Assembly: GCA_022566355.1 (NCBI GenBank) | Contig: JADFJB010000162.1 | Span: 1 to 7,921, forward strand | From: a candidate division KSB1 bacterium | GTDB lineage: Bacteria; Zhuqueibacterota; JdFR-76; DREG01 | Length of the DNA: 7,921 nt | Direction of reading: 5' to 3' | Shown here: positions 1 to 6,459 of the stretch, piece by piece | Position numbering within the stretch: position 1 is the stretch's first letter | Layout: every line of letters begins with the position of its first letter | Translations under genes and position numbers: made by a program | The notes under the pieces: generated by a model | The model's database searches: none | The model's input: the letters and a program-made list of their open reading frames with translations, nothing else | What the model was told of the DNA's origin: nothing

Positions 1-27
1 TGCGATCAATCTATTTAATCTATTCAT
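1..27 (-). CDS. Start of a lipoprotein paralogue (partial, runs off the left edge)
   Basis: Only nine codons are visible, reading MNRLNRLIA. They match the first nine residues of the complete lipoprotein at 1588-2157 (MNRLKRLIT) at seven positions. An AAGGAG Shine-Dalgarno site (plus-strand ctcctt, 35-40) lies seven bases before the ATG at 25-27, as in the other copy. The whole upstream region is nearly identical too, so I infer a second member of the same lipoprotein family. The visible residues are only the positively charged n-region of a signal peptide. Nothing can be said about the rest of this protein. Confidence 0.6.
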
Positions 28-90
28 TTTACAACTCCTTTATTTTGGTTAATATTATTTTGTTTTTTCTTTTCCATTTGCCTTCATACA

Positions 91-106
91 AGCAACAGGT
101 ATGCCA
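91..106 (-). promoter_or_regulatory. Sigma-54 (RpoN) promoter, left copy
   Basis: Read on the minus strand the sequence is TGGCATACCTGTTGCT. It fits every position of the established sigma-54 consensus TGGCAYRNNNNTTGCW, including the invariant GG (-24) and GC (-12) with correct spacing. It points toward the partial lipoprotein gene, which would give a leader of roughly 50-55 bases. Sigma-54 promoters need an AAA+ activator bound upstream, and the repeat array at 172-232 is correctly placed for one. No activator gene is in the window. Confidence 0.8.
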
Positions 107-171
107 AAGTGTAAAAAGAGTTATAACTTATTGATTATATGGCATTTGGAGAATTTCCCTTACTGAAAGCC

Positions 172-232
172 AATTGGCTGAGTTCAGCCAATTTGATGAG
201 TTCAGCCAATCAATTTGCTCATTTCAGCCAAT
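172..232 (-). promoter_or_regulatory. Upstream activator-binding repeat array, left copy
   Basis: An inverted repeat with 10-bp arms, AATTGGCTGA (172-181) and TCAGCCAATT (184-193), is separated by two bases. The half-site TTCAGCCAAT recurs at 183-192, 201-210 and 223-232. The array starts about 65 bp upstream of the -24 element, a normal distance for sites of sigma-54 enhancer-binding proteins. Function is inferred from this geometry and from near-perfect conservation in the second copy. The motif is not a known activator site I recognise. Confidence 0.6.
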
Positions 233-234
233 TT

Positions 235-489
235 ACAATGGTTGTTATAAAGCCTTGGGGAATTGAAAAGAAGAGTTTTTGAATAAGAAGAGGTATGAGA
301 TTTAAGTTTGCTAGACCCCTGCTTTGAATTGACCCTTTTGAAATGGATTTGAAACCACAGTATTCTTATTTTATCCGCGAATTTCTGTCACATAATAACA
401 CTGATGCAATACACAAAATAGATAAAAGCAGCCGTTCGAGATAATATTTAAATTCCAAAAAGTTATTTTCATACTTACAACTTTATCTC
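235..489. other. Gene-free spacer between the divergent units
   Basis: AT-rich sequence separating the left lipoprotein promoter (reading left) from the cysteine-rich gene (reading right). The only reading frame of any length, on the minus strand over 371-589, has no ribosome binding site, has unconvincing composition and covers the start of the plus-strand gene, so I regard it as chance. The one recognisable item is a diverged 41-bp sequence at 374-414 that recurs near 2780. I see no RNA gene or strong hairpin. Confidence 0.5.
374..414 (+). repeat. Diverged dispersed repeat, copy 1
   Basis: This 41-bp stretch aligns without gaps to 2780-2820 at 31 of 41 positions (about 76%). Both start with tccg, then share gaatt, ctgt, cata and a later tga-gca-tac pattern. 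Both lie in gene-free DNA upstream of the duplicated regulatory blocks. It may be the remains of an older repeat or mobile element. The evidence is one pairwise alignment by eye. Confidence 0.35.
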
Positions 490-517
490 TTGACAATCTT
501 AACTTTATTTCTAATTT
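490..517 (+). promoter_or_regulatory. Candidate sigma-70-type promoter of the cysteine-rich gene
   Basis: A perfect -35 hexamer TTGACA (490-495) is followed after 16 bp by a weak -10, TAATTT (512-517), with a TATAAA five bases further on. Transcription would begin about 50 bases before the TTG start at 576. The -35 is convincing and the -10 is not, so this is only a candidate. No sigma-54 match is present here, so this gene appears to be controlled differently from the flanking lipoprotein genes. Confidence 0.4.
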
Positions 518-575
518 ATAAATCGCAGAACAAAATGTAACTTTTTGTATTAACAATAACTTGTGGAGGTAGATA

Positions 576-788
576 TTGAAACGATTCATCTATTTAGTAC
601 TCGTGGGGGCATTCCTCGTCGCTATTCCGGCGTCTCATCTCATGGGTGGTAAATCAGAAGAGCCGAGCTCGCCGTGTGAAGCACTATGTGCCGCGGCCAT
701 GAAGGATTGCGCGAGTAAAGTCCGTAAATCGCGAGAATGCGCAGAAATACTTAGGGGGTGTATAGAGATATGTCATACTACTTGTTAA
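576..788 (+). CDS. Small secreted cysteine-rich protein (70 aa)
   Basis: I do not recognise a named family. The TTG start is set by a strong GGAGGT (565-570) five bases upstream. Residues 1-23 form a signal peptide or membrane anchor (MKRF then a hydrophobic run). The remaining 45 or so residues are hydrophilic with seven cysteines at 34, 38, 45, 55, 62, 66 and 70. The spacing is nearly mirror-symmetric, C-x3-C-x6-C, nine residues, C-x6-C-x3-C-x3-C, as expected of two amphipathic helices packed as a hairpin. This suggests either paired disulfides or thiolate metal binding, and it loosely recalls the helical Cys-rich DUF326/Csp copper-binding proteins, though much shorter. Its base composition is clearly more GC-rich than its flanks, hinting at a different origin. 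A decayed VKOR-DsbA-like gene follows on the same strand. The gene looks intact and has its own terminator. Function is unproven. Confidence 0.75.
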   Translation: MKRFIYLVLVGAFLVAIPASHLMGGKSEEPSSPCEALCAAAMKDCASKVRKSRECAEILRGCIEICHTTC

Positions 789-804
789 TTGCGAGATGGG
801 GAAC

Positions 805-823
805 CATGGCCAGTAGAGCCATG
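805..823 (+). other. Small hairpin after the cysteine-rich gene
   Basis: CATGGC (805-810) and GCCATG (818-823) can pair around a seven-base loop. It has no T-tract, so it is not a terminator by itself. It could protect the 3' end of the transcript or be coincidental. Confidence 0.25.
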
Positions 824-853
824 TGAATATCCAACTAAGTAAGCTAATTTAAA

Positions 854-890
854 AATGAGACTGGGGGTGATAGTGCCCCCAGTTTTCATT
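854..890 (+). terminator. Rho-independent terminator of the cysteine-rich gene
   Basis: ACTGGGGG (860-867) pairs perfectly with CCCCCAGT (876-883) around an eight-base loop. Outer AATGA (854-858) can pair with TCATT (886-890) across a small internal bulge. The stem is followed by TTTTCATTT. It lies 66 bases after the stop codon. Because the flanks are A-rich on one side and T-rich on the other, it could also act on leftward transcription. It closes eight bases before the ATG of the following pseudogene, which therefore has no obvious promoter. Confidence 0.75.
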
Positions 891-897
891 TCTGCTT

Positions 898-1481
898 ATG
901 GCTATTAAGAGTCTAAGATTTACATGTCTCACTCTCCTGGTATTTAGTCTGTCAGTCTGTGGCTATCTGCTATTCCGTCACTTCACTCTCACGGCTATAG
1001 GGGCTAATATTGGGTTCGACATTTGCTCGGCGATCTTTGGAACGGGCAGATTTGATTAAACGATTTGAAGGGAAACTTCAGGTCTTCTTCAAGCATTTTC
1101 CACTAGGGACAACCTGCAATCCTTCAATGGAAATTGACATTCATCCACAGGCTTGTGAGGCTGCAGAGGCAGCTGAAGCTGCAAACCGGCAGAAAAAGTT
1201 TTGGGTTTTTCACGACGTCTTGTTCGCATCTGACCTTAACAGTAGTCCGAACATGGTTAGTTTGATCGCCGCAGAAATAGAGTTAGATCTGCAAGCAATT
1301 TGAGGCTGATCGAAAATCACAAACAACCATTGAGAAAGTAAAATCAGATATTGATCTGGGGAACCGTTTAGGTGTGAATGCAACCCCTACAATTTTTATT
1401 AATTCTCGTTTAGTCTCTGACATTAGCTTACAAACGATCGAGTTCTTGATCACGAATGAGTTACAACTGGCAGACCAATAA
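898..1481 (+). pseudogene. Decayed VKOR-DsbA (vitamin K epoxide reductase / thioredoxin-like) fusion gene
   Basis: Three fragments in three frames read like one thiol-oxidation protein. Frame one (898-1059) gives an N-terminal membrane helix and then GFDICSAIFGTG, which matches the first periplasmic cysteine loop of bacterial VKOR proteins. At about 1047 it runs directly, out of frame, into a DsbA-like thioredoxin domain beginning RADLIKRFEGK and VFFKHFPLGTTCNPSM. That frame stops at 1301-1303. A third frame continues from about 1299 (FEADRKS, then GVNATPTIFIN, the cis-proline loop) to a double stop at 1479. Missing are most of the VKOR domain, including its CxxC, and the N-terminal part of the thioredoxin fold with its CxxC. 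I infer one large internal deletion plus a frameshift. An intact version would re-oxidise periplasmic disulfides with quinone as acceptor. This copy cannot. Identification rests on remembered family sequence. Confidence 0.8.
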
Positions 1482-1523
1482 TAACCCTACTCCAGGCTAT
1501 GTCTCTAAATGACGGGAGATTTG

Positions 1524-1561
1524 GAAAAAAGAAAAGGCCATCCCTAATTAGAGATGGCCTT
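1524..1561 (-). terminator. Rho-independent terminator of the lipoprotein gene
   Basis: On the minus strand, AAGGCCATC (plus 1553-1561) pairs with GATGGCCTT (plus 1534-1542) through nine perfect pairs around a ten-base loop. It is followed by TTTTCTTTTTT. It begins 26 bases after the lipoprotein stop codon. The strong T-tract on the minus side sets the orientation. The stem is symmetric, so it could also block read-through from the pseudogene side. Confidence 0.85.
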
Positions 1562-1587
1562 CAATTAAACCTCCTTGTTTATATATC

Positions 1588-2157
1588 TTAATTTGCAGCC
1601 AGGGCATAACGCGAGAAGTGATCGATATAGCCGTTAACTTGTTTCTTCACAGTGTTTACATCGGATGCGATAAGTTCCCAGACACCTTCCGTCTCGTTAA
1701 AAAAGTAGATACGGATGTCTTGCTCATTAATTCCAGTTAGATCAGCGTCTTTGTAAGAAAGTGTGATCTTAACTGGGTTGTTAAAAACGGCGTCACTTGG
1801 AGAGAATTCTGCTCCGCCCTCAAGTAATCCCGTAGATTCCCAAGAGAAGCGAACTAACACATCTTGGCTGACGTCACCACTTTTGAAATGGAGACTGCTC
1901 TTTCCATGCTCCTCATCCCCCACATGGATTTTACCGCCGTTTTTAACCGTTATCAGTTTTTCATTCACGAAAAGTTTGCCAAGGCTGTAGGTTTTTGCTT
2001 TAAGTATTTTAAGTTCTTCATCTGCCTGTTTGGGCGCAATTGAATGTGCTTCAGACTGCAAAGGCGACTCTTTGGAACAGGCGCTAAAGTTCAGAGCCAT
2101 TCCGGCTGCCAATAACACCGCCATACTCGATGTGATCAATCTCTTTAATCTATTCAT
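1588..2157 (-). CDS. Lipoprotein with a ZU5-like domain (189 aa)
   Basis: Residues 1-26 are a signal peptide (MNRLKRL, hydrophobic core about 12-24) ending in the lipobox-like FSAC, so Cys27 is the likely lipidated residue. Residues 28-60 form a polar linker. From about 70 to the end lies a beta-rich domain that I match to the ZU5-like fold found in many bacterial surface lipoproteins: GGKIHVG (74-80), FNNPVKITLSYKDADL (125-140), VWELIASDVN (159-168) and the closing GYIDHFSRYALA (176-187). No catalytic residues are evident, so binding or structural roles are likeliest. The start is supported by AAGGAG seven bases upstream and by conservation of the start in the partial paralogue at 1-27. It is a single-gene unit with a sigma-54-type promoter, an upstream activator array and its own terminator, so expression is probably switched on by a specific signal. 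The domain assignment is from memory of similar proteins, and the substrate is unknown. Confidence 0.85.
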   Translation of the reverse strand: MNRLKRLITSSMAVLLAAGMALNFSACSKESPLQSEAHSIAPKQADEELKILKAKTYSLGKLFVNEKLITVKNGGKIHVGDEEHGKSSLHFKSGDVSQDVLVRFSWESTGLLEGGAEFSPSDAVFNNPVKITLSYKDADLTGINEQDIRIYFFNETEGVWELIASDVNTVKKQVNGYIDHFSRYALAAN

Positions 2158-2219
2158 TTTACATCTCCTTACTTTTGGTTAATATTATTTTGTTTTTTCT
2201 TTCCATTTGCCTTCATACA

Positions 2220-2235
2220 TGCAACAGGTATGCCA
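2220..2235 (-). promoter_or_regulatory. Sigma-54 (RpoN) promoter of the ZU5-like lipoprotein gene
   Basis: On the minus strand the sequence is TGGCATACCTGTTGCA, an exact fit to TGGCAYRNNNNTTGCW. Transcription should start near 2209, giving a leader of about 50 bases that ends in the AAGGAG site at 2165-2170. An overlapping TTTACA further upstream could be read as a sigma-70 -35, but no good -10 goes with it. The sigma-54 reading is stronger because it is exact and present in both copies. Confidence 0.82.
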
Positions 2236-2300
2236 AAGTGTAAAAAGAGTTATAAGTTATTGATTATATGGCATTTGGAGAATTTCTCTTACTGAAAACC

Positions 2301-2361
2301 AATTGGCTGAGTTCAGCCAATTTGATGAGTTCAGCCAATCAATTTGCTCATTTCAGCCAAT
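2301..2361 (-). promoter_or_regulatory. Upstream activator-binding repeat array, right copy
   Basis: Inverted repeat arms AATTGGCTGA (2301-2310) and TCAGCCAATT (2313-2322) have a two-base centre. Further TTCAGCCAAT half-sites lie at 2330-2339 and 2352-2361. Relative to the predicted start near 2209 the array spans roughly -92 to -152, typical of enhancer-binding-protein sites. In this copy the last half-site continues into tttgatgag, the same extension that follows the first half-site, so the unit may be 18 bp long. Confidence 0.6.
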
Positions 2362-2370
2362 TTGATGAGA

Positions 2371-2408
2371 CGTGAAACGGCAAACGTGAAACGGCAAACG
2401 TGAAACGG
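2371..2408 (+). repeat. 14-bp tandem repeat, about 2.7 copies
   Basis: cgtgaaacggcaaa is repeated at 2371-2384 and 2385-2398, followed by a partial cgtgaaacgg at 2399-2408. The units are identical. It begins eight bases beyond the end of the duplicated block and is absent from the left copy, so it may mark a rearrangement boundary. No coding role is visible. Confidence 0.85.
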
Positions 2409-3381: not shown

Positions 3382-6300
3382 CTATTGCTTCGAAACTGCA
3401 CTCAATAAACGCAGCTCAATTATGGGATTTTCTTTATTCTCATACCGGCTCCATAATTCTACGGCTGCAGCTTTATTCTCGAGAGCAAGATTCGCTAACA
3501 TCGCAGCCATGAGGAAATAATCATTCCAGCGTGAAGCCTTTATTGCACCAGGAGGGAGTAGTTGAGTTGATATTTTTAAAACCTGGTCAAAATCCCGACT
3601 CCCTAACGATCTATATAGGTTCACCAAATTCATTATTTCCGGGGGTATATTCGAGAAACATGGCGCTGACTCAATATCTGACCAAATCATCTTCATTTCC
3701 TGTGATGACAAATAAGGCAAGGTCAAATCTAATAAATAACTTATTGAGGGAAACCAATTTTCAATGATGTCTTTGGTTTCACATTTTTCACGAATCAGCC
3801 TGAAGCTACGAACAATTTGAGTGGTTTTTTGATCCATCGGAATAGTTGGCGTATTGTTTCTGTCTTCCAAATATCTAAAATATTGAAAAATAGCTTTCCC
3901 CTGGTGTGCCCGATAACTTAGAATTGAATTTTCAGGCAAACTGCCGAACCCCGATGTTTGGAGAGCAGTATCGTTTGCTAAGGTCTCAAGTAGAGGCATT
4001 GGTGCAGAACGTAACCTTACCAATTCTGTCGCATCACTTTTCAAGTATCTTGCTTTAACCGCCCTTATATCGAGAATCGGGAAATAATCTGAATTAGCAG
4101 GAATGTCATAGGAATTAAATAACGGATCCAGCGTTTTTTTGCTGCCCAATTTACGCAACTGCAAATCTTGTTTCCCGAAAATTTTGACGCGGGCAAGCTC
4201 AGGTTTCAATCCGGGAATCGTGAATATCCTATCTGAGAGCTGGCGATTTATTTGCTGCTTCCCCGCAAGAATAATAATATTCTGATCTCCGGTAAAATAA
4301 ATCGAATAATCAACAAAATTTTCGGACAGCGCTTTGATAATCGAAGCGATTAAAGGAGTATCCATTTCGTATAAATGCATCCACTGCACAAATAACCCAT
4401 CATCTTTAATGTAATTACGAATCAGGCGATAAAACTCCTTAGAAAAGAGTCCGGCGACACCGCTAACCCAGGGATTGGAAGGTTCTGAAATAATTAAATC
4501 ATACTGTTTACCTGCGTTGGTAAAAAAGGTTTTAGCGTCTTCAAAGTAAATATGACTACGTGGGTCAGTGTAATTATTGGCGACCCGCTCTCCAAAACCT
4601 TTTGCCGCTTCCACTATTGCCGGTTCAATCTCGACAATATCTACTTCGTCAATATCAGGATCCATTAATAATAAGTGAGAAGTCAGCCCTGACCCAAAAC
4701 CAATATTGGCGACAGTTTTTGCTTTGGTATGAAGCGATAATGGCAGCGCCGCTAATATTATCATAGTGATCTCATCCTGAGATGCGGTGGCTGAATAATT
4801 TATGGTCGCATCCGTTTTACCATTAGTAAGAATCGACAGTTTACCGGAACCACTTCTAACCAGGTCGACAGACGCTGTTTTGCCATCCTTATGAAACAAA
4901 ATTTTAGATTCACTTGCAGCAATGCCATTTCTATAAACACCAGAGGCCATTTTCGCCGAATCCAATTCAATCCAAAAAGCATTTAATAAAACAATCCCTG
5001 TGAAAATCGCAGCAACTACACTCCATTTTATCCTGGAAATTTGCGATTTCGAATACCACAAGAGTATTAATCCCAGGAGAATATCAATTCCTCCACCCAT
5101 GACAATTAAATTCTTCACACCTAAAACCGGCATAATCAAATGAACCCCTATTAAAACTCCGGCAATAGCTCCAACGGTGTTAGCGGCATAGATTTTACCG
5201 ATGGAGCCTTCTCCCTGCCCATTGGACATTAGGGTATGAGTCAGGAGCGGCAGGGTCATGCCTGCACATACTGTTGCAGGAAGCATGATGAATATTGCCA
5301 GGCCATGGCTAAATAGATTGAAATAGGCATAGCCCTGCCCTGTTTTTGGAAATGTTTTTATTGCATAGCTCATTAAATCAAACGTTTGGCCGTAGGATAG
5401 CAAGGTCAATAAAGCAAAACCTCCCATTACCAATTGAACCAGACCCAGGGTGTATACCGGGTTGGATAATTTATCGATCTTGCGGCTAATCAAGTAGCCC
5501 CCAATCGCCAGGCCCAAAATAAAGGAACTTAACATCAGCTCAAATGCATGTGTCGAACTGCCGAGCACTAAACTGAGCATGCGAATCCAGCCAATTTCAT
5601 ACATAAAGGAAGCGGTTCCGGTTAACCCTGCCACAAGTAGAAAAATAAGTGACAGCCTTTGCGAGGATATTCTTTTGGGCTGGAATTTTTCGGAAACAAA
5701 ATCCCGGCTTCGGTGGTGTGTTTTTCTGTAACAAATTGCTCCAACAACTAAAGCAAGCAAGATGTTCAGGATACCTGCGATCATAATTGTACCGGGCAGA
5801 CCGAAGTATTCAATCAACAGAAAACCACTGACTAAAATTCCAATGGCAGCTCCCAGGCTATTGACAAAATAAAGAAATGCTAAAGAGCGACCGGGGGTTT
5901 GGGGAAACCGGCGGATGATGCCGCCGCTCATTAACGGAAATGTTGCGCCAAGTAGAATCGACTGTGGCAGAATAATCAATGACGCTAAACCCCATTTAAA
6001 GAAATTAACAGCCATCCCACTATTTAATTGTGGAATGATGGAAAAGTATGCTAAATCCGTGGCGGTAACAAACAATGGATGGAATAAGATTCCCAACAGA
6101 CCGATAACCCCTTCAACCAGAGCATAACCCAGCAATAAATTACGGATTTTTAAACTATACCGACCAATTCCCCACGCACCAAGTGCCATCCCGCCCATAA
6201 AGATAATCAGCACAAGAGATTGGGCGTAAGCTGCATGACCCAAAAATAATTTGAGATAGTGGGTCCAAATCGATTCGTATATGAGACCGGAAAAACCGGA

Positions 6301-6459
6301 AACAGCAAATAGGAAGTAAAAAATGCCTTTCCCGACTTTCTTGTTTTTTGGTAAAAGCTCTTCTTGCTTCTCAGTTAAAAGTGGTTTGAGAGGATCCTCT
6401 AAAACTGCCAGAGATTCTGTTTCGAAAAGTTTGTCCTGGGTTTCCATACGAAATGACAT
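3382..6459 (-). CDS. Fused polytopic membrane / spermidine-synthase-like protein (1025 aa)
   Basis: After a 44-residue acidic N-terminus come about 12-13 membrane helices arranged as an internal duplication. GFSGLIYESIW (55-65) with its following helix matches GLTGTASFMYEIGWIR (278-293), and GATFPLMSGG (171-180) matches GMTLPLLTHT (400-409). The membrane part ends with a helix at about 477-497. A cytosolic Rossmann domain follows, with the S-adenosyl ligand motif NIGFGSGLT (585-593), acidic VEIEP (609-613), ED (640-641) and SEPSNPWVSG (658-667). In true spermidine synthases the last motif is D-S-S-D-P, so here the catalytic aspartate is replaced and polyamine synthesis is doubtful. Many database entries call this family 'fused MFS/spermidine synthase', and its real substrate is unknown. 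Residues 790-1025 are a helical tail of unknown type. Start: the ATG at 6459 has no Shine-Dalgarno site, and Met5 (6447) is equally possible. A 15-base palindrome (6449-6463) covers the start codon. It follows the pilin gene after about 100 bases, with no promoter I can see between them. Confidence 0.88.
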   Translation of the reverse strand: MSFRMETQDKLFETESLAVLEDPLKPLLTEKQEELLPKNKKVGKGIFYFLFAVSGFSGLIYESIWTHYLKLFLGHAAYAQSLVLIIFMGGMALGAWGIGRYSLKIRNLLLGYALVEGVIGLLGILFHPLFVTATDLAYFSIIPQLNSGMAVNFFKWGLASLIILPQSILLGATFPLMSGGIIRRFPQTPGRSLAFLYFVNSLGAAIGILVSGFLLIEYFGLPGTIMIAGILNILLALVVGAICYRKTHHRSRDFVSEKFQPKRISSQRLSLIFLLVAGLTGTASFMYEIGWIRMLSLVLGSSTHAFELMLSSFILGLAIGGYLISRKIDKLSNPVYTLGLVQLVMGGFALLTLLSYGQTFDLMSYAIKTFPKTGQGYAYFNLFSHGLAIFIMLPATVCAGMTLPLLTHTLMSNGQGEGSIGKIYAANTVGAIAGVLIGVHLIMPVLGVKNLIVMGGGIDILLGLILLWYSKSQISRIKWSVVAAIFTGIVLLNAFWIELDSAKMASGVYRNGIAASESKILFHKDGKTASVDLVRSGSGKLSILTNGKTDATINYSATASQDEITMIILAALPLSLHTKAKTVANIGFGSGLTSHLLLMDPDIDEVDIVEIEPAIVEAAKGFGERVANNYTDPRSHIYFEDAKTFFTNAGKQYDLIISEPSNPWVSGVAGLFSKEFYRLIRNYIKDDGLFVQWMHLYEMDTPLIASIIKALSENFVDYSIYFTGDQNIIILAGKQQINRQLSDRIFTIPGLKPELARVKIFGKQDLQLRKLGSKKTLDPLFNSYDIPANSDYFPILDIRAVKARYLKSDATELVRLRSAPMPLLETLANDTALQTSGFGSLPENSILSYRAHQGKAIFQYFRYLEDRNNTPTIPMDQKTTQIVRSFRLIREKCETKDIIENWFPSISYLLDLTLPYLSSQEMKMIWSDIESAPCFSNIPPEIMNLVNLYRSLGSRDFDQVLKISTQLLPPGAIKASRWNDYFLMAAMLANLALENKAAAVELWSRYENKENPIIELRLLSAVSKQ

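What the first reader, a model, noticed from the sequence alone, without database searches (positions are those of the whole stretch)
1..2363. Duplicated sigma-54 promoter cassette in front of paralogous lipoprotein genes
A block of about 234 bp, nearly all non-coding, occurs twice in the same orientation at about 96% identity. It carries the lipoprotein start, ribosome site, sigma-54 promoter and activator array. The lipoprotein starts differ (MNRLNRLIA versus MNRLKRLIT), so the control region seems at least as conserved as the coding start. This suggests a multi-copy family of surface lipoproteins under one shared signal, possibly a dispersed regulon.
Basis: partly seen in the sequence, partly recalled or inferred. 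Interest (0 to 1): 0.7.

Follow-up and report, generated by a model that had tools for sequence, protein, structure and literature searches.

The report
Copied sigma-54 switch for divergent lipoproteins
A roughly 234-base control switch, with three activator-binding sites and a sigma-54 promoter, occurs twice 2.1 kb apart in an uncultured bacterium, apparently in front of two old, very different surface-lipoprotein genes that relatives read from a single such switch, at the head of an undescribed kinase and peptide-transporter operon in several of them.

Summary
In detail: 1-234 and 2131-2363 are 96% identical, and they are the only copies in the 4.6-Mb genome. Each copy has three TTGGCTGANNTCAGCCAA dyads, a near-consensus -24/-12 core, a ribosome site and the start of a lipoprotein gene. 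The window is a whole contig (C162), so the left gene runs off its edge. A profile search found a lipoprotein tail cut by the right end of contig C53, oriented so that it can be that gene. It belongs to an old paralogue type, A; the window's complete lipoprotein is type B. They share 30% identity over 74 residues, against 96% for the control block. Hence the cassette was copied or homogenised, not the whole gene; this rests on the inferred join C53-gap-C162.

Relatives carry the same triple-dyad/sigma-54 cassette. Several put it at the head of an operon of lipoproteins, AAA/TPR protein, Ser/Thr kinase, FHA protein, oligopeptide ABC transporter and a sensor-less sigma-54 activator. This genome keeps the activator's orthologue on C61, the best candidate for reading the cassette. 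A dispersed regulon is seen in relatives (G056, G002), not in this assembly beyond these two copies. No expression or binding was tested.

The parts
1..27 (-). first nine codons (MNRLNRLIA) of the left lipoprotein gene, cut by the contig end; probably the start of the type-A gene whose last 116 codons are at C53:29229-29573
   Evidence: contig edge; C53 fragment truncated by the opposite contig end in matching orientation
28..90 (-). 5' leader and ribosome site (AAGGAG) of the left copy
   Evidence: sequence; 59/63 identical to the right copy
91..106 (-). sigma-54 -24/-12 core TGGCATACCTGTTGCT, left copy
   Evidence: score 20.1 of 20.7
174..231 (-). activator array, left copy: dyads at 174-191 (TTGGCTGAACTCAGCCAA), 192-209, 214-231
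2343..2360 (-). distal dyad, right copy TTGGCTGAAATGAGCAAA
2321..2338 (-). middle dyad, right copy TTGGCTGAACTCATCAAA
2303..2320 (-). proximal perfect dyad, right copy TTGGCTGAACTCAGCCAA, 67 bp upstream of the core
2220..2235 (-). sigma-54 -24/-12 core TGGCATACCTGTTGCA, right copy
   Evidence: score 20.1 of 20.7
2158..2219 (-). 5' leader and ribosome site (AAGGAG), right copy
   Evidence: sequence
1588..2157 (-). type-B lipoprotein gene, 189 aa, lipobox Cys27, conserved FSPSxxxFxxPV and C-terminal HFSRYAL; ZU5-like domain (weak)
1533..1562 (-). intrinsic terminator-like hairpin just behind the type-B gene, so it looks monocistronic
   Evidence: 13-pair stem followed by TCTTTTTT

Best explanation
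The repeated block is a complete sigma-54 control cassette: three tandem binding dyads that can seat a hexameric AAA+ activator, a -24/-12 promoter, a leader with a ribosome site, and the first codons of a lipoprotein gene. It is present twice, so that two anciently diverged ZU5-like lipoprotein paralogues (type B complete in the window; type A off the left edge, its tail on contig C53) are each read from their own copy. The most likely activator is the receiver-less sigma-54 activator on contig C61, whose orthologues in relatives sit at the end of an operon that starts with the same dyads, promoter and lipoproteins. When active, it would bind the triple dyads and loop to sigma-54 polymerase at both promoters, switching both lipoproteins on together. 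The cassette was duplicated, or kept uniform by gene conversion, in this lineage. Shown: sequence identity, geometry, conservation of dyads and promoter, operon structure in relatives, co-occurrence with the activator. Inferred: the join C53-gap-C162, the activator-site match, co-induction, the signal, and the function of the lipoproteins.
For: Block identity and sharp edge. Cores 20.1/20.7. In homologue loci chosen by protein only, the first lipoprotein gene has a strong -24/-12 site in 15 of 21 cases versus 5 of 184 other genes, p=3e-14. Triple dyads with 18 + 20-22 bp spacing recur in G000, G001, G002, G056 and G013, with weaker versions in G040, G067, G015 and G034; the proximal dyad lies 65-67, 78 or 121-123 bp from the core, roughly whole helical turns. 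Tandem dyad arrays at <=1 mismatch occur only in genomes with the receiver-less activator: five genomes, all among the 10 carriers of 99 (p=3.5e-6). Own activator C61: 359 aa, GAFTGA, no N-terminal domain, 54-76% identical to the orthologues, other own activators <=48%. The same recognition helix RG[KR][LF]RY[RK] occurs in a Spirochaetaceae activator next to the same dyad, while activators with SRPRLxRKI sit at loci whose promoters have a different dyad. The C53 fragment clades 100/100 with the first-gene lipoproteins of G056, G015 and G034.
Against: The join C53-gap-C162 is not sequenced; the left gene could be another one. No dyad array was found upstream of the C61 activator operon itself, and its transporter genes are not preceded by the binding-protein gene seen in relatives. 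The kinase/AAA part is not in this assembly. The genome has about 20 activators. The one outside genome with a perfect triple-dyad cassette (L124) has no activator with this helix, though its contig may be misbinned. RpoN itself was not searched for. No expression or binding data.
Confidence: 0.7

Rival explanations
1. A recent tandem duplication of the whole promoter-plus-lipoprotein gene; the left gene is a near-identical copy of the right one and the contig broke there because of the repeat.
For: Identity continues into the first nine codons (25/27) up to the contig edge; relatives do have tandem lipoproteins, e.g. two near-identical type-B copies in G015.
Against: No second type-B gene or fragment is in the assembly, while a type-A tail cut by a contig end in the right orientation exists. 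The block ends exactly at the distal dyad.
Confidence: 0.2
2. Both copies are bound by another of the roughly 20 activators, and the C61 activator has a different target.
For: About 20 activators in the genome; no dyads near C61.
Against: The C61 activator is the orthologue of the activator in the operon led by these dyads in relatives and the only own one found with the RGKLRYR helix; six own activators were not extracted by that script; co-occurrence.
Confidence: 0.2
3. Assembly artefact: two strain variants of one locus placed on one contig.
For: Metagenome-like fragmented assembly; contig edge at the repeat.
Against: The copies are joined by 1.9 kb of unique sequence, differ in flanks on both outer sides, and type A and type B are different genes.
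Confidence: 0.05

Closest known systems
NorR / norVW enhancer arrangement (E. coli)
   Same: sigma-54 promoter with three upstream activator sites that scaffold a hexamer (PMC2941729)
   Different: different dyad sequence; the activator here has no sensor domain and scores far below the NorR cut-off (299.7 versus 476)
PspF-type receiver-less sigma-54 activators
   Same: AAA+ plus Fis-type HTH only, GAFTGA, about 350 aa
   Different: below the PspF model cut-offs (272.8 versus 443.6; 230.6 versus 529); in relatives located in an operon with oligopeptide ABC transporter, kinase and FHA protein
Sigma-54 as controller of the bacterial exterior (Francke et al. 2011, PMC3162934)
   Same: sigma-54 control of cell-surface components, lipoproteins included
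   Different: this kinase/FHA/oligopeptide-transporter operon and this dyad are not described in the passages read; the terms oligopeptide and FHA do not occur in that paper
Promoter propagation / mobile promoters in prokaryotes (from memory; the paper is not held)
   Same: a non-coding control region copied within one genome in front of different genes
   Different: here the copied unit is a full sigma-54 cassette in front of paralogues that relatives keep in one operon

Membership tests
sigma-54-dependent promoter | GG-N10-GC core (TGGCAY-N5-TTGCW) | tested here: met
   TGGCATACCTGTTGC[A/T], score 20.1 of 20.7 in both copies
sigma-54-dependent promoter | upstream activator sites | tested here: met
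   three dyads 68-125 bp upstream of the core, conserved in relatives
sigma-54-dependent promoter | dependence of transcription on RpoN and an activator | not testable with these tools
   needs expression data; 20 activator genes are present, rpoN was not searched for
sigma-54 activator (bEBP), C61 protein | Sigma54_activat domain with GAFTGA, and Fis-type HTH | tested here: met
   PF00158 1.3e-66, HTH_8 2e-12; GAFTGA
NorR or PspF proper | score above the curated equivalog cut-off | tested here: not met
bacterial lipoprotein | signal peptide with lipobox cysteine | tested here: met
   Cys27 invariant in 16 aligned members; by sequence only, -3 position is Phe
ZU5 domain | match above the Pfam cut-off | tested here: inconclusive
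   6 of 16 members match ZU5 weakly, best E 0.019; ankyrin ZU5 chains appear at E 0.05-0.13; single-sequence model too poor to use
whole-gene tandem duplication | downstream coding regions as identical as the block | tested here: not met
   29.7% over 74 aa if the C53 fragment is the left gene; conditional on the inferred join

The most novel reading that the evidence does not exclude
The cassette is the output of an undescribed envelope-signalling system: a sensor-less sigma-54 activator whose activity is set by a co-encoded Ser/Thr kinase, FHA/zinc-ribbon protein and AAA/TPR proteins, coupled to an oligopeptide ABC importer, and whose main outputs are ZU5-like surface lipoproteins. In this lineage the switch has been copied so that lipoproteins A and B are independent transcription units.
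Probability: 0.25. Interest if true: 0.75.

Novelty: new variant of a known kind. Interest (0 to 1): 0.55.

Why it matters
It ties a specific DNA dyad to a specific activator lineage and to a conserved, apparently undescribed operon (lipoproteins, kinase, FHA protein, peptide importer, activator) in an uncultured bacterial phylum. It also gives a clean natural case of a whole sigma-54 switch, enhancers included, copied in front of old paralogues. It yields a one-plasmid test: the activator and the 234-bp block.

Tried and rejected
Idea that the left copy leads directly into the C61 transporter operon: dropped, because C61 shows no binding-protein gene at its end, the AAA protein is absent, and C53 fits as the partner. 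UAS-like hits in C62 and C166: inside genes. UAS single hits in G019, G028, G043, G045, G048, G062, G078: inside open frames, without tandem partners. Of the 13 hits of the genome-wide pattern scan, L124, L129 and L135 look real among the seven inspected; the others inspected look like chance, six were not inspected. Activator orthologue in the L124 genome: not found. Structure model of the lipoprotein: mean pLDDT 47, not used. Rfam: nothing. Literature for the dyad or for kinase-FHA-activator-oligopeptide systems: nothing useful.

Full report
What is there. The window is the whole of contig C162 in a 4.62-Mb, 213-contig assembly, 98.5% complete. On the minus strand it carries two copies of a control block, 1-234 and 2131-2363. 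They are 96% identical by blastn over 28-234. Segment counts: dyad array 63/63, spacer 62/65, -24/-12 core 15/16, leader 59/63 with one gap, first nine codons 25/27. Homology stops dead at 234/2363. The right copy leads a complete 189-aa lipoprotein gene (1588-2157, minus) followed by a terminator-like hairpin (1562-1533). The left copy leads nine codons and then the contig ends.

The control block. The core TGGCATACCTGTTGC[A/T] scores 20.1 of 20.7 on a hand-set scale that was fixed before promoters of relatives were scanned; the next best in the window is 19.7 inside a gene. Upstream lie three dyads of the form TTGGCTGANNTCAGCCAA at -85, -103 and -125 from the core. No other copy of the block, and no other dyad above control level, exists in the genome.

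Relatives. Searching about 99 related genomes with the lipoprotein found a family often arranged as two to four neighbouring genes. In loci selected by protein alone, the first lipoprotein gene has a strong -24/-12 site in 15 of 21 cases against 5 of 184 other genes (p=3e-14). The same triple dyads recur: G001 (same family), G002 (same family, two loci, degenerate cores), G056 (four loci) and G013, with weaker ones in G040, G067, G015 and G034. Dyad spacing is 18 plus 20-22 bp, and the proximal dyad is 65-67, 78 or 121-123 bp from the core, near whole helical turns. Single dyads elsewhere in the phylum fall mostly inside genes and lack tandem partners.

The operon. In G013, G040, G015, G034, G056 and G067 the genes behind the lipoproteins are, in order, a large AAA/TPR ATPase, a TPR protein (no separate one among the genes called in G067), a Ser/Thr kinase with AAA and TPR regions, a zinc-ribbon/FHA protein, an oligopeptide-binding protein, ABC ATPases, two permeases and a sigma-54 activator of 344-402 aa without sensor domain. 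Domains were tested by Pfam for G013 only; the others are assigned by order, length and sequence likeness. In G056 this operon begins at a contig end inside a lipoprotein, on a different contig from its dyads. In G001 the dyads and promoter stand directly before the AAA gene. This genome keeps the activator (C61, 359 aa; AAA domain from residue 15, GAFTGA, Fis-type HTH) behind the transporter permeases. The AAA gene is not in the assembly, and C61 shows no binding-protein gene before its ATPases.

The activator-site match. Ten genomes carry a close orthologue of the C61 activator (54-76% identity, no receiver domain); the rest fall to about 50% or less. All five genomes with tandem dyad arrays at one mismatch or less are among these ten of 99 (p=3.5e-6; relatedness of the genomes is not corrected for). 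The orthologues share the recognition helix NRGKLRYR or close variants. A Spirochaetaceae activator with SRGRLRYR sits next to a perfect dyad of the same type and a sigma-54 core. A sister group of lipoprotein loci uses another dyad type (GTAACGAAACGTTAC-like), with activators whose helix reads SRPRLxRKI. This is correlation, not binding. One counter-example: L124 has the cassette before a FliD-like gene, but no such activator was found in its genome.

The left gene. A profile of the family found a third own-genome member missed by the single-sequence search: C53:29229-29573, minus, on a contig of 29575 bases. It is the last 116 codons of a lipoprotein, cut at its 5' side by the contig's right end; the left gene of C162 is cut at its 3' side by the contig's left end, so orientation and order fit. 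By comparison with G056 about 70 codons would be missing between them. In a tree the fragment groups 100/100 with the first-gene lipoproteins of G056, G015 and G034 (type A), while the window's gene falls with the second-gene type B. A and B share 29.7% identity over 74 residues. If the join is right, the control block (96%) is far more alike than the genes behind it.

Mechanism. Best reading: an active C61-type activator binds the three dyads, forms its hexamer there as NorR does on its three sites (PMC2941729), and opens sigma-54 polymerase at both cores, giving joint expression of lipoproteins A and B. In relatives one cassette reads A and B in one operon; here each has its own. A duplication of promoter plus A plus B followed by loss of one gene from each copy, or gene conversion of the control region, would explain it; this step is inferred. 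What the lipoproteins do and what signal is sensed are unknown; the kinase, FHA protein and peptide importer in relatives suggest an envelope or peptide signal (inference).

Limits. Contig ends, no expression data, rpoN not searched directly, a poor structure model, only weak support for the ZU5 fold. The name of the organism is not given by the tools; one relative, G001, is the deposited 'Bacteroidota bacterium CSMAG_3093' (first 8000 bases of contig JAUXJX010000013.1 identical to G001:C220).

Noticed in passing
window 576-788 (+): A 70-aa secreted-looking, cysteine-rich peptide (CEALCAAAMKDCASKV...CAEILRGCIEICHTTC) with no family match, followed by a strong hairpin at 857-886.
   Followed up: partly
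window 898-1483 (+): A frame-broken gene remnant whose last piece resembles the C-terminal part of DsbA-like thioredoxins (Thioredoxin_4, E 8e-4, below cut-off); it lies next to the cysteine-rich peptide.
   Followed up: partly
window 2371-2408: Short tandem repeat GTGAAACGGCAAAC (about 2.5 copies) directly upstream of the right activator array.
   Followed up: no
L042 7542-14246 (own contig C78) and L172 (G040 C41): The third lipoprotein type sits in another conserved locus with an ECF-type sigma factor, a putative anti-sigma protein and a CHAT/TPR protein; in G040 also with a receiver-less activator.
   Followed up: partly
L047, L048, L052, L054, L056, L057: A sister system: lipoproteins with -24/-12 promoters and GTAACGAAACGTTAC-type dyads; in several loci a receiver-type activator lies directly upstream, and a TPR protein or oligopeptide transporter genes lie nearby.
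   Followed up: partly
L124 2972-4435: The same triple-dyad/sigma-54 cassette, with nearly the same spacing, stands before a FliD-like gene in a MAG labelled Bacteroidetes B12T1B10, in which no matching activator was found.
   Followed up: partly
window 3382-6459 (-) and L187 11789-13576: Large membrane proteins with spermidine-synthase domains lie on both C162 and the end of C53, mildly consistent with the two contigs being neighbours.
   Followed up: no
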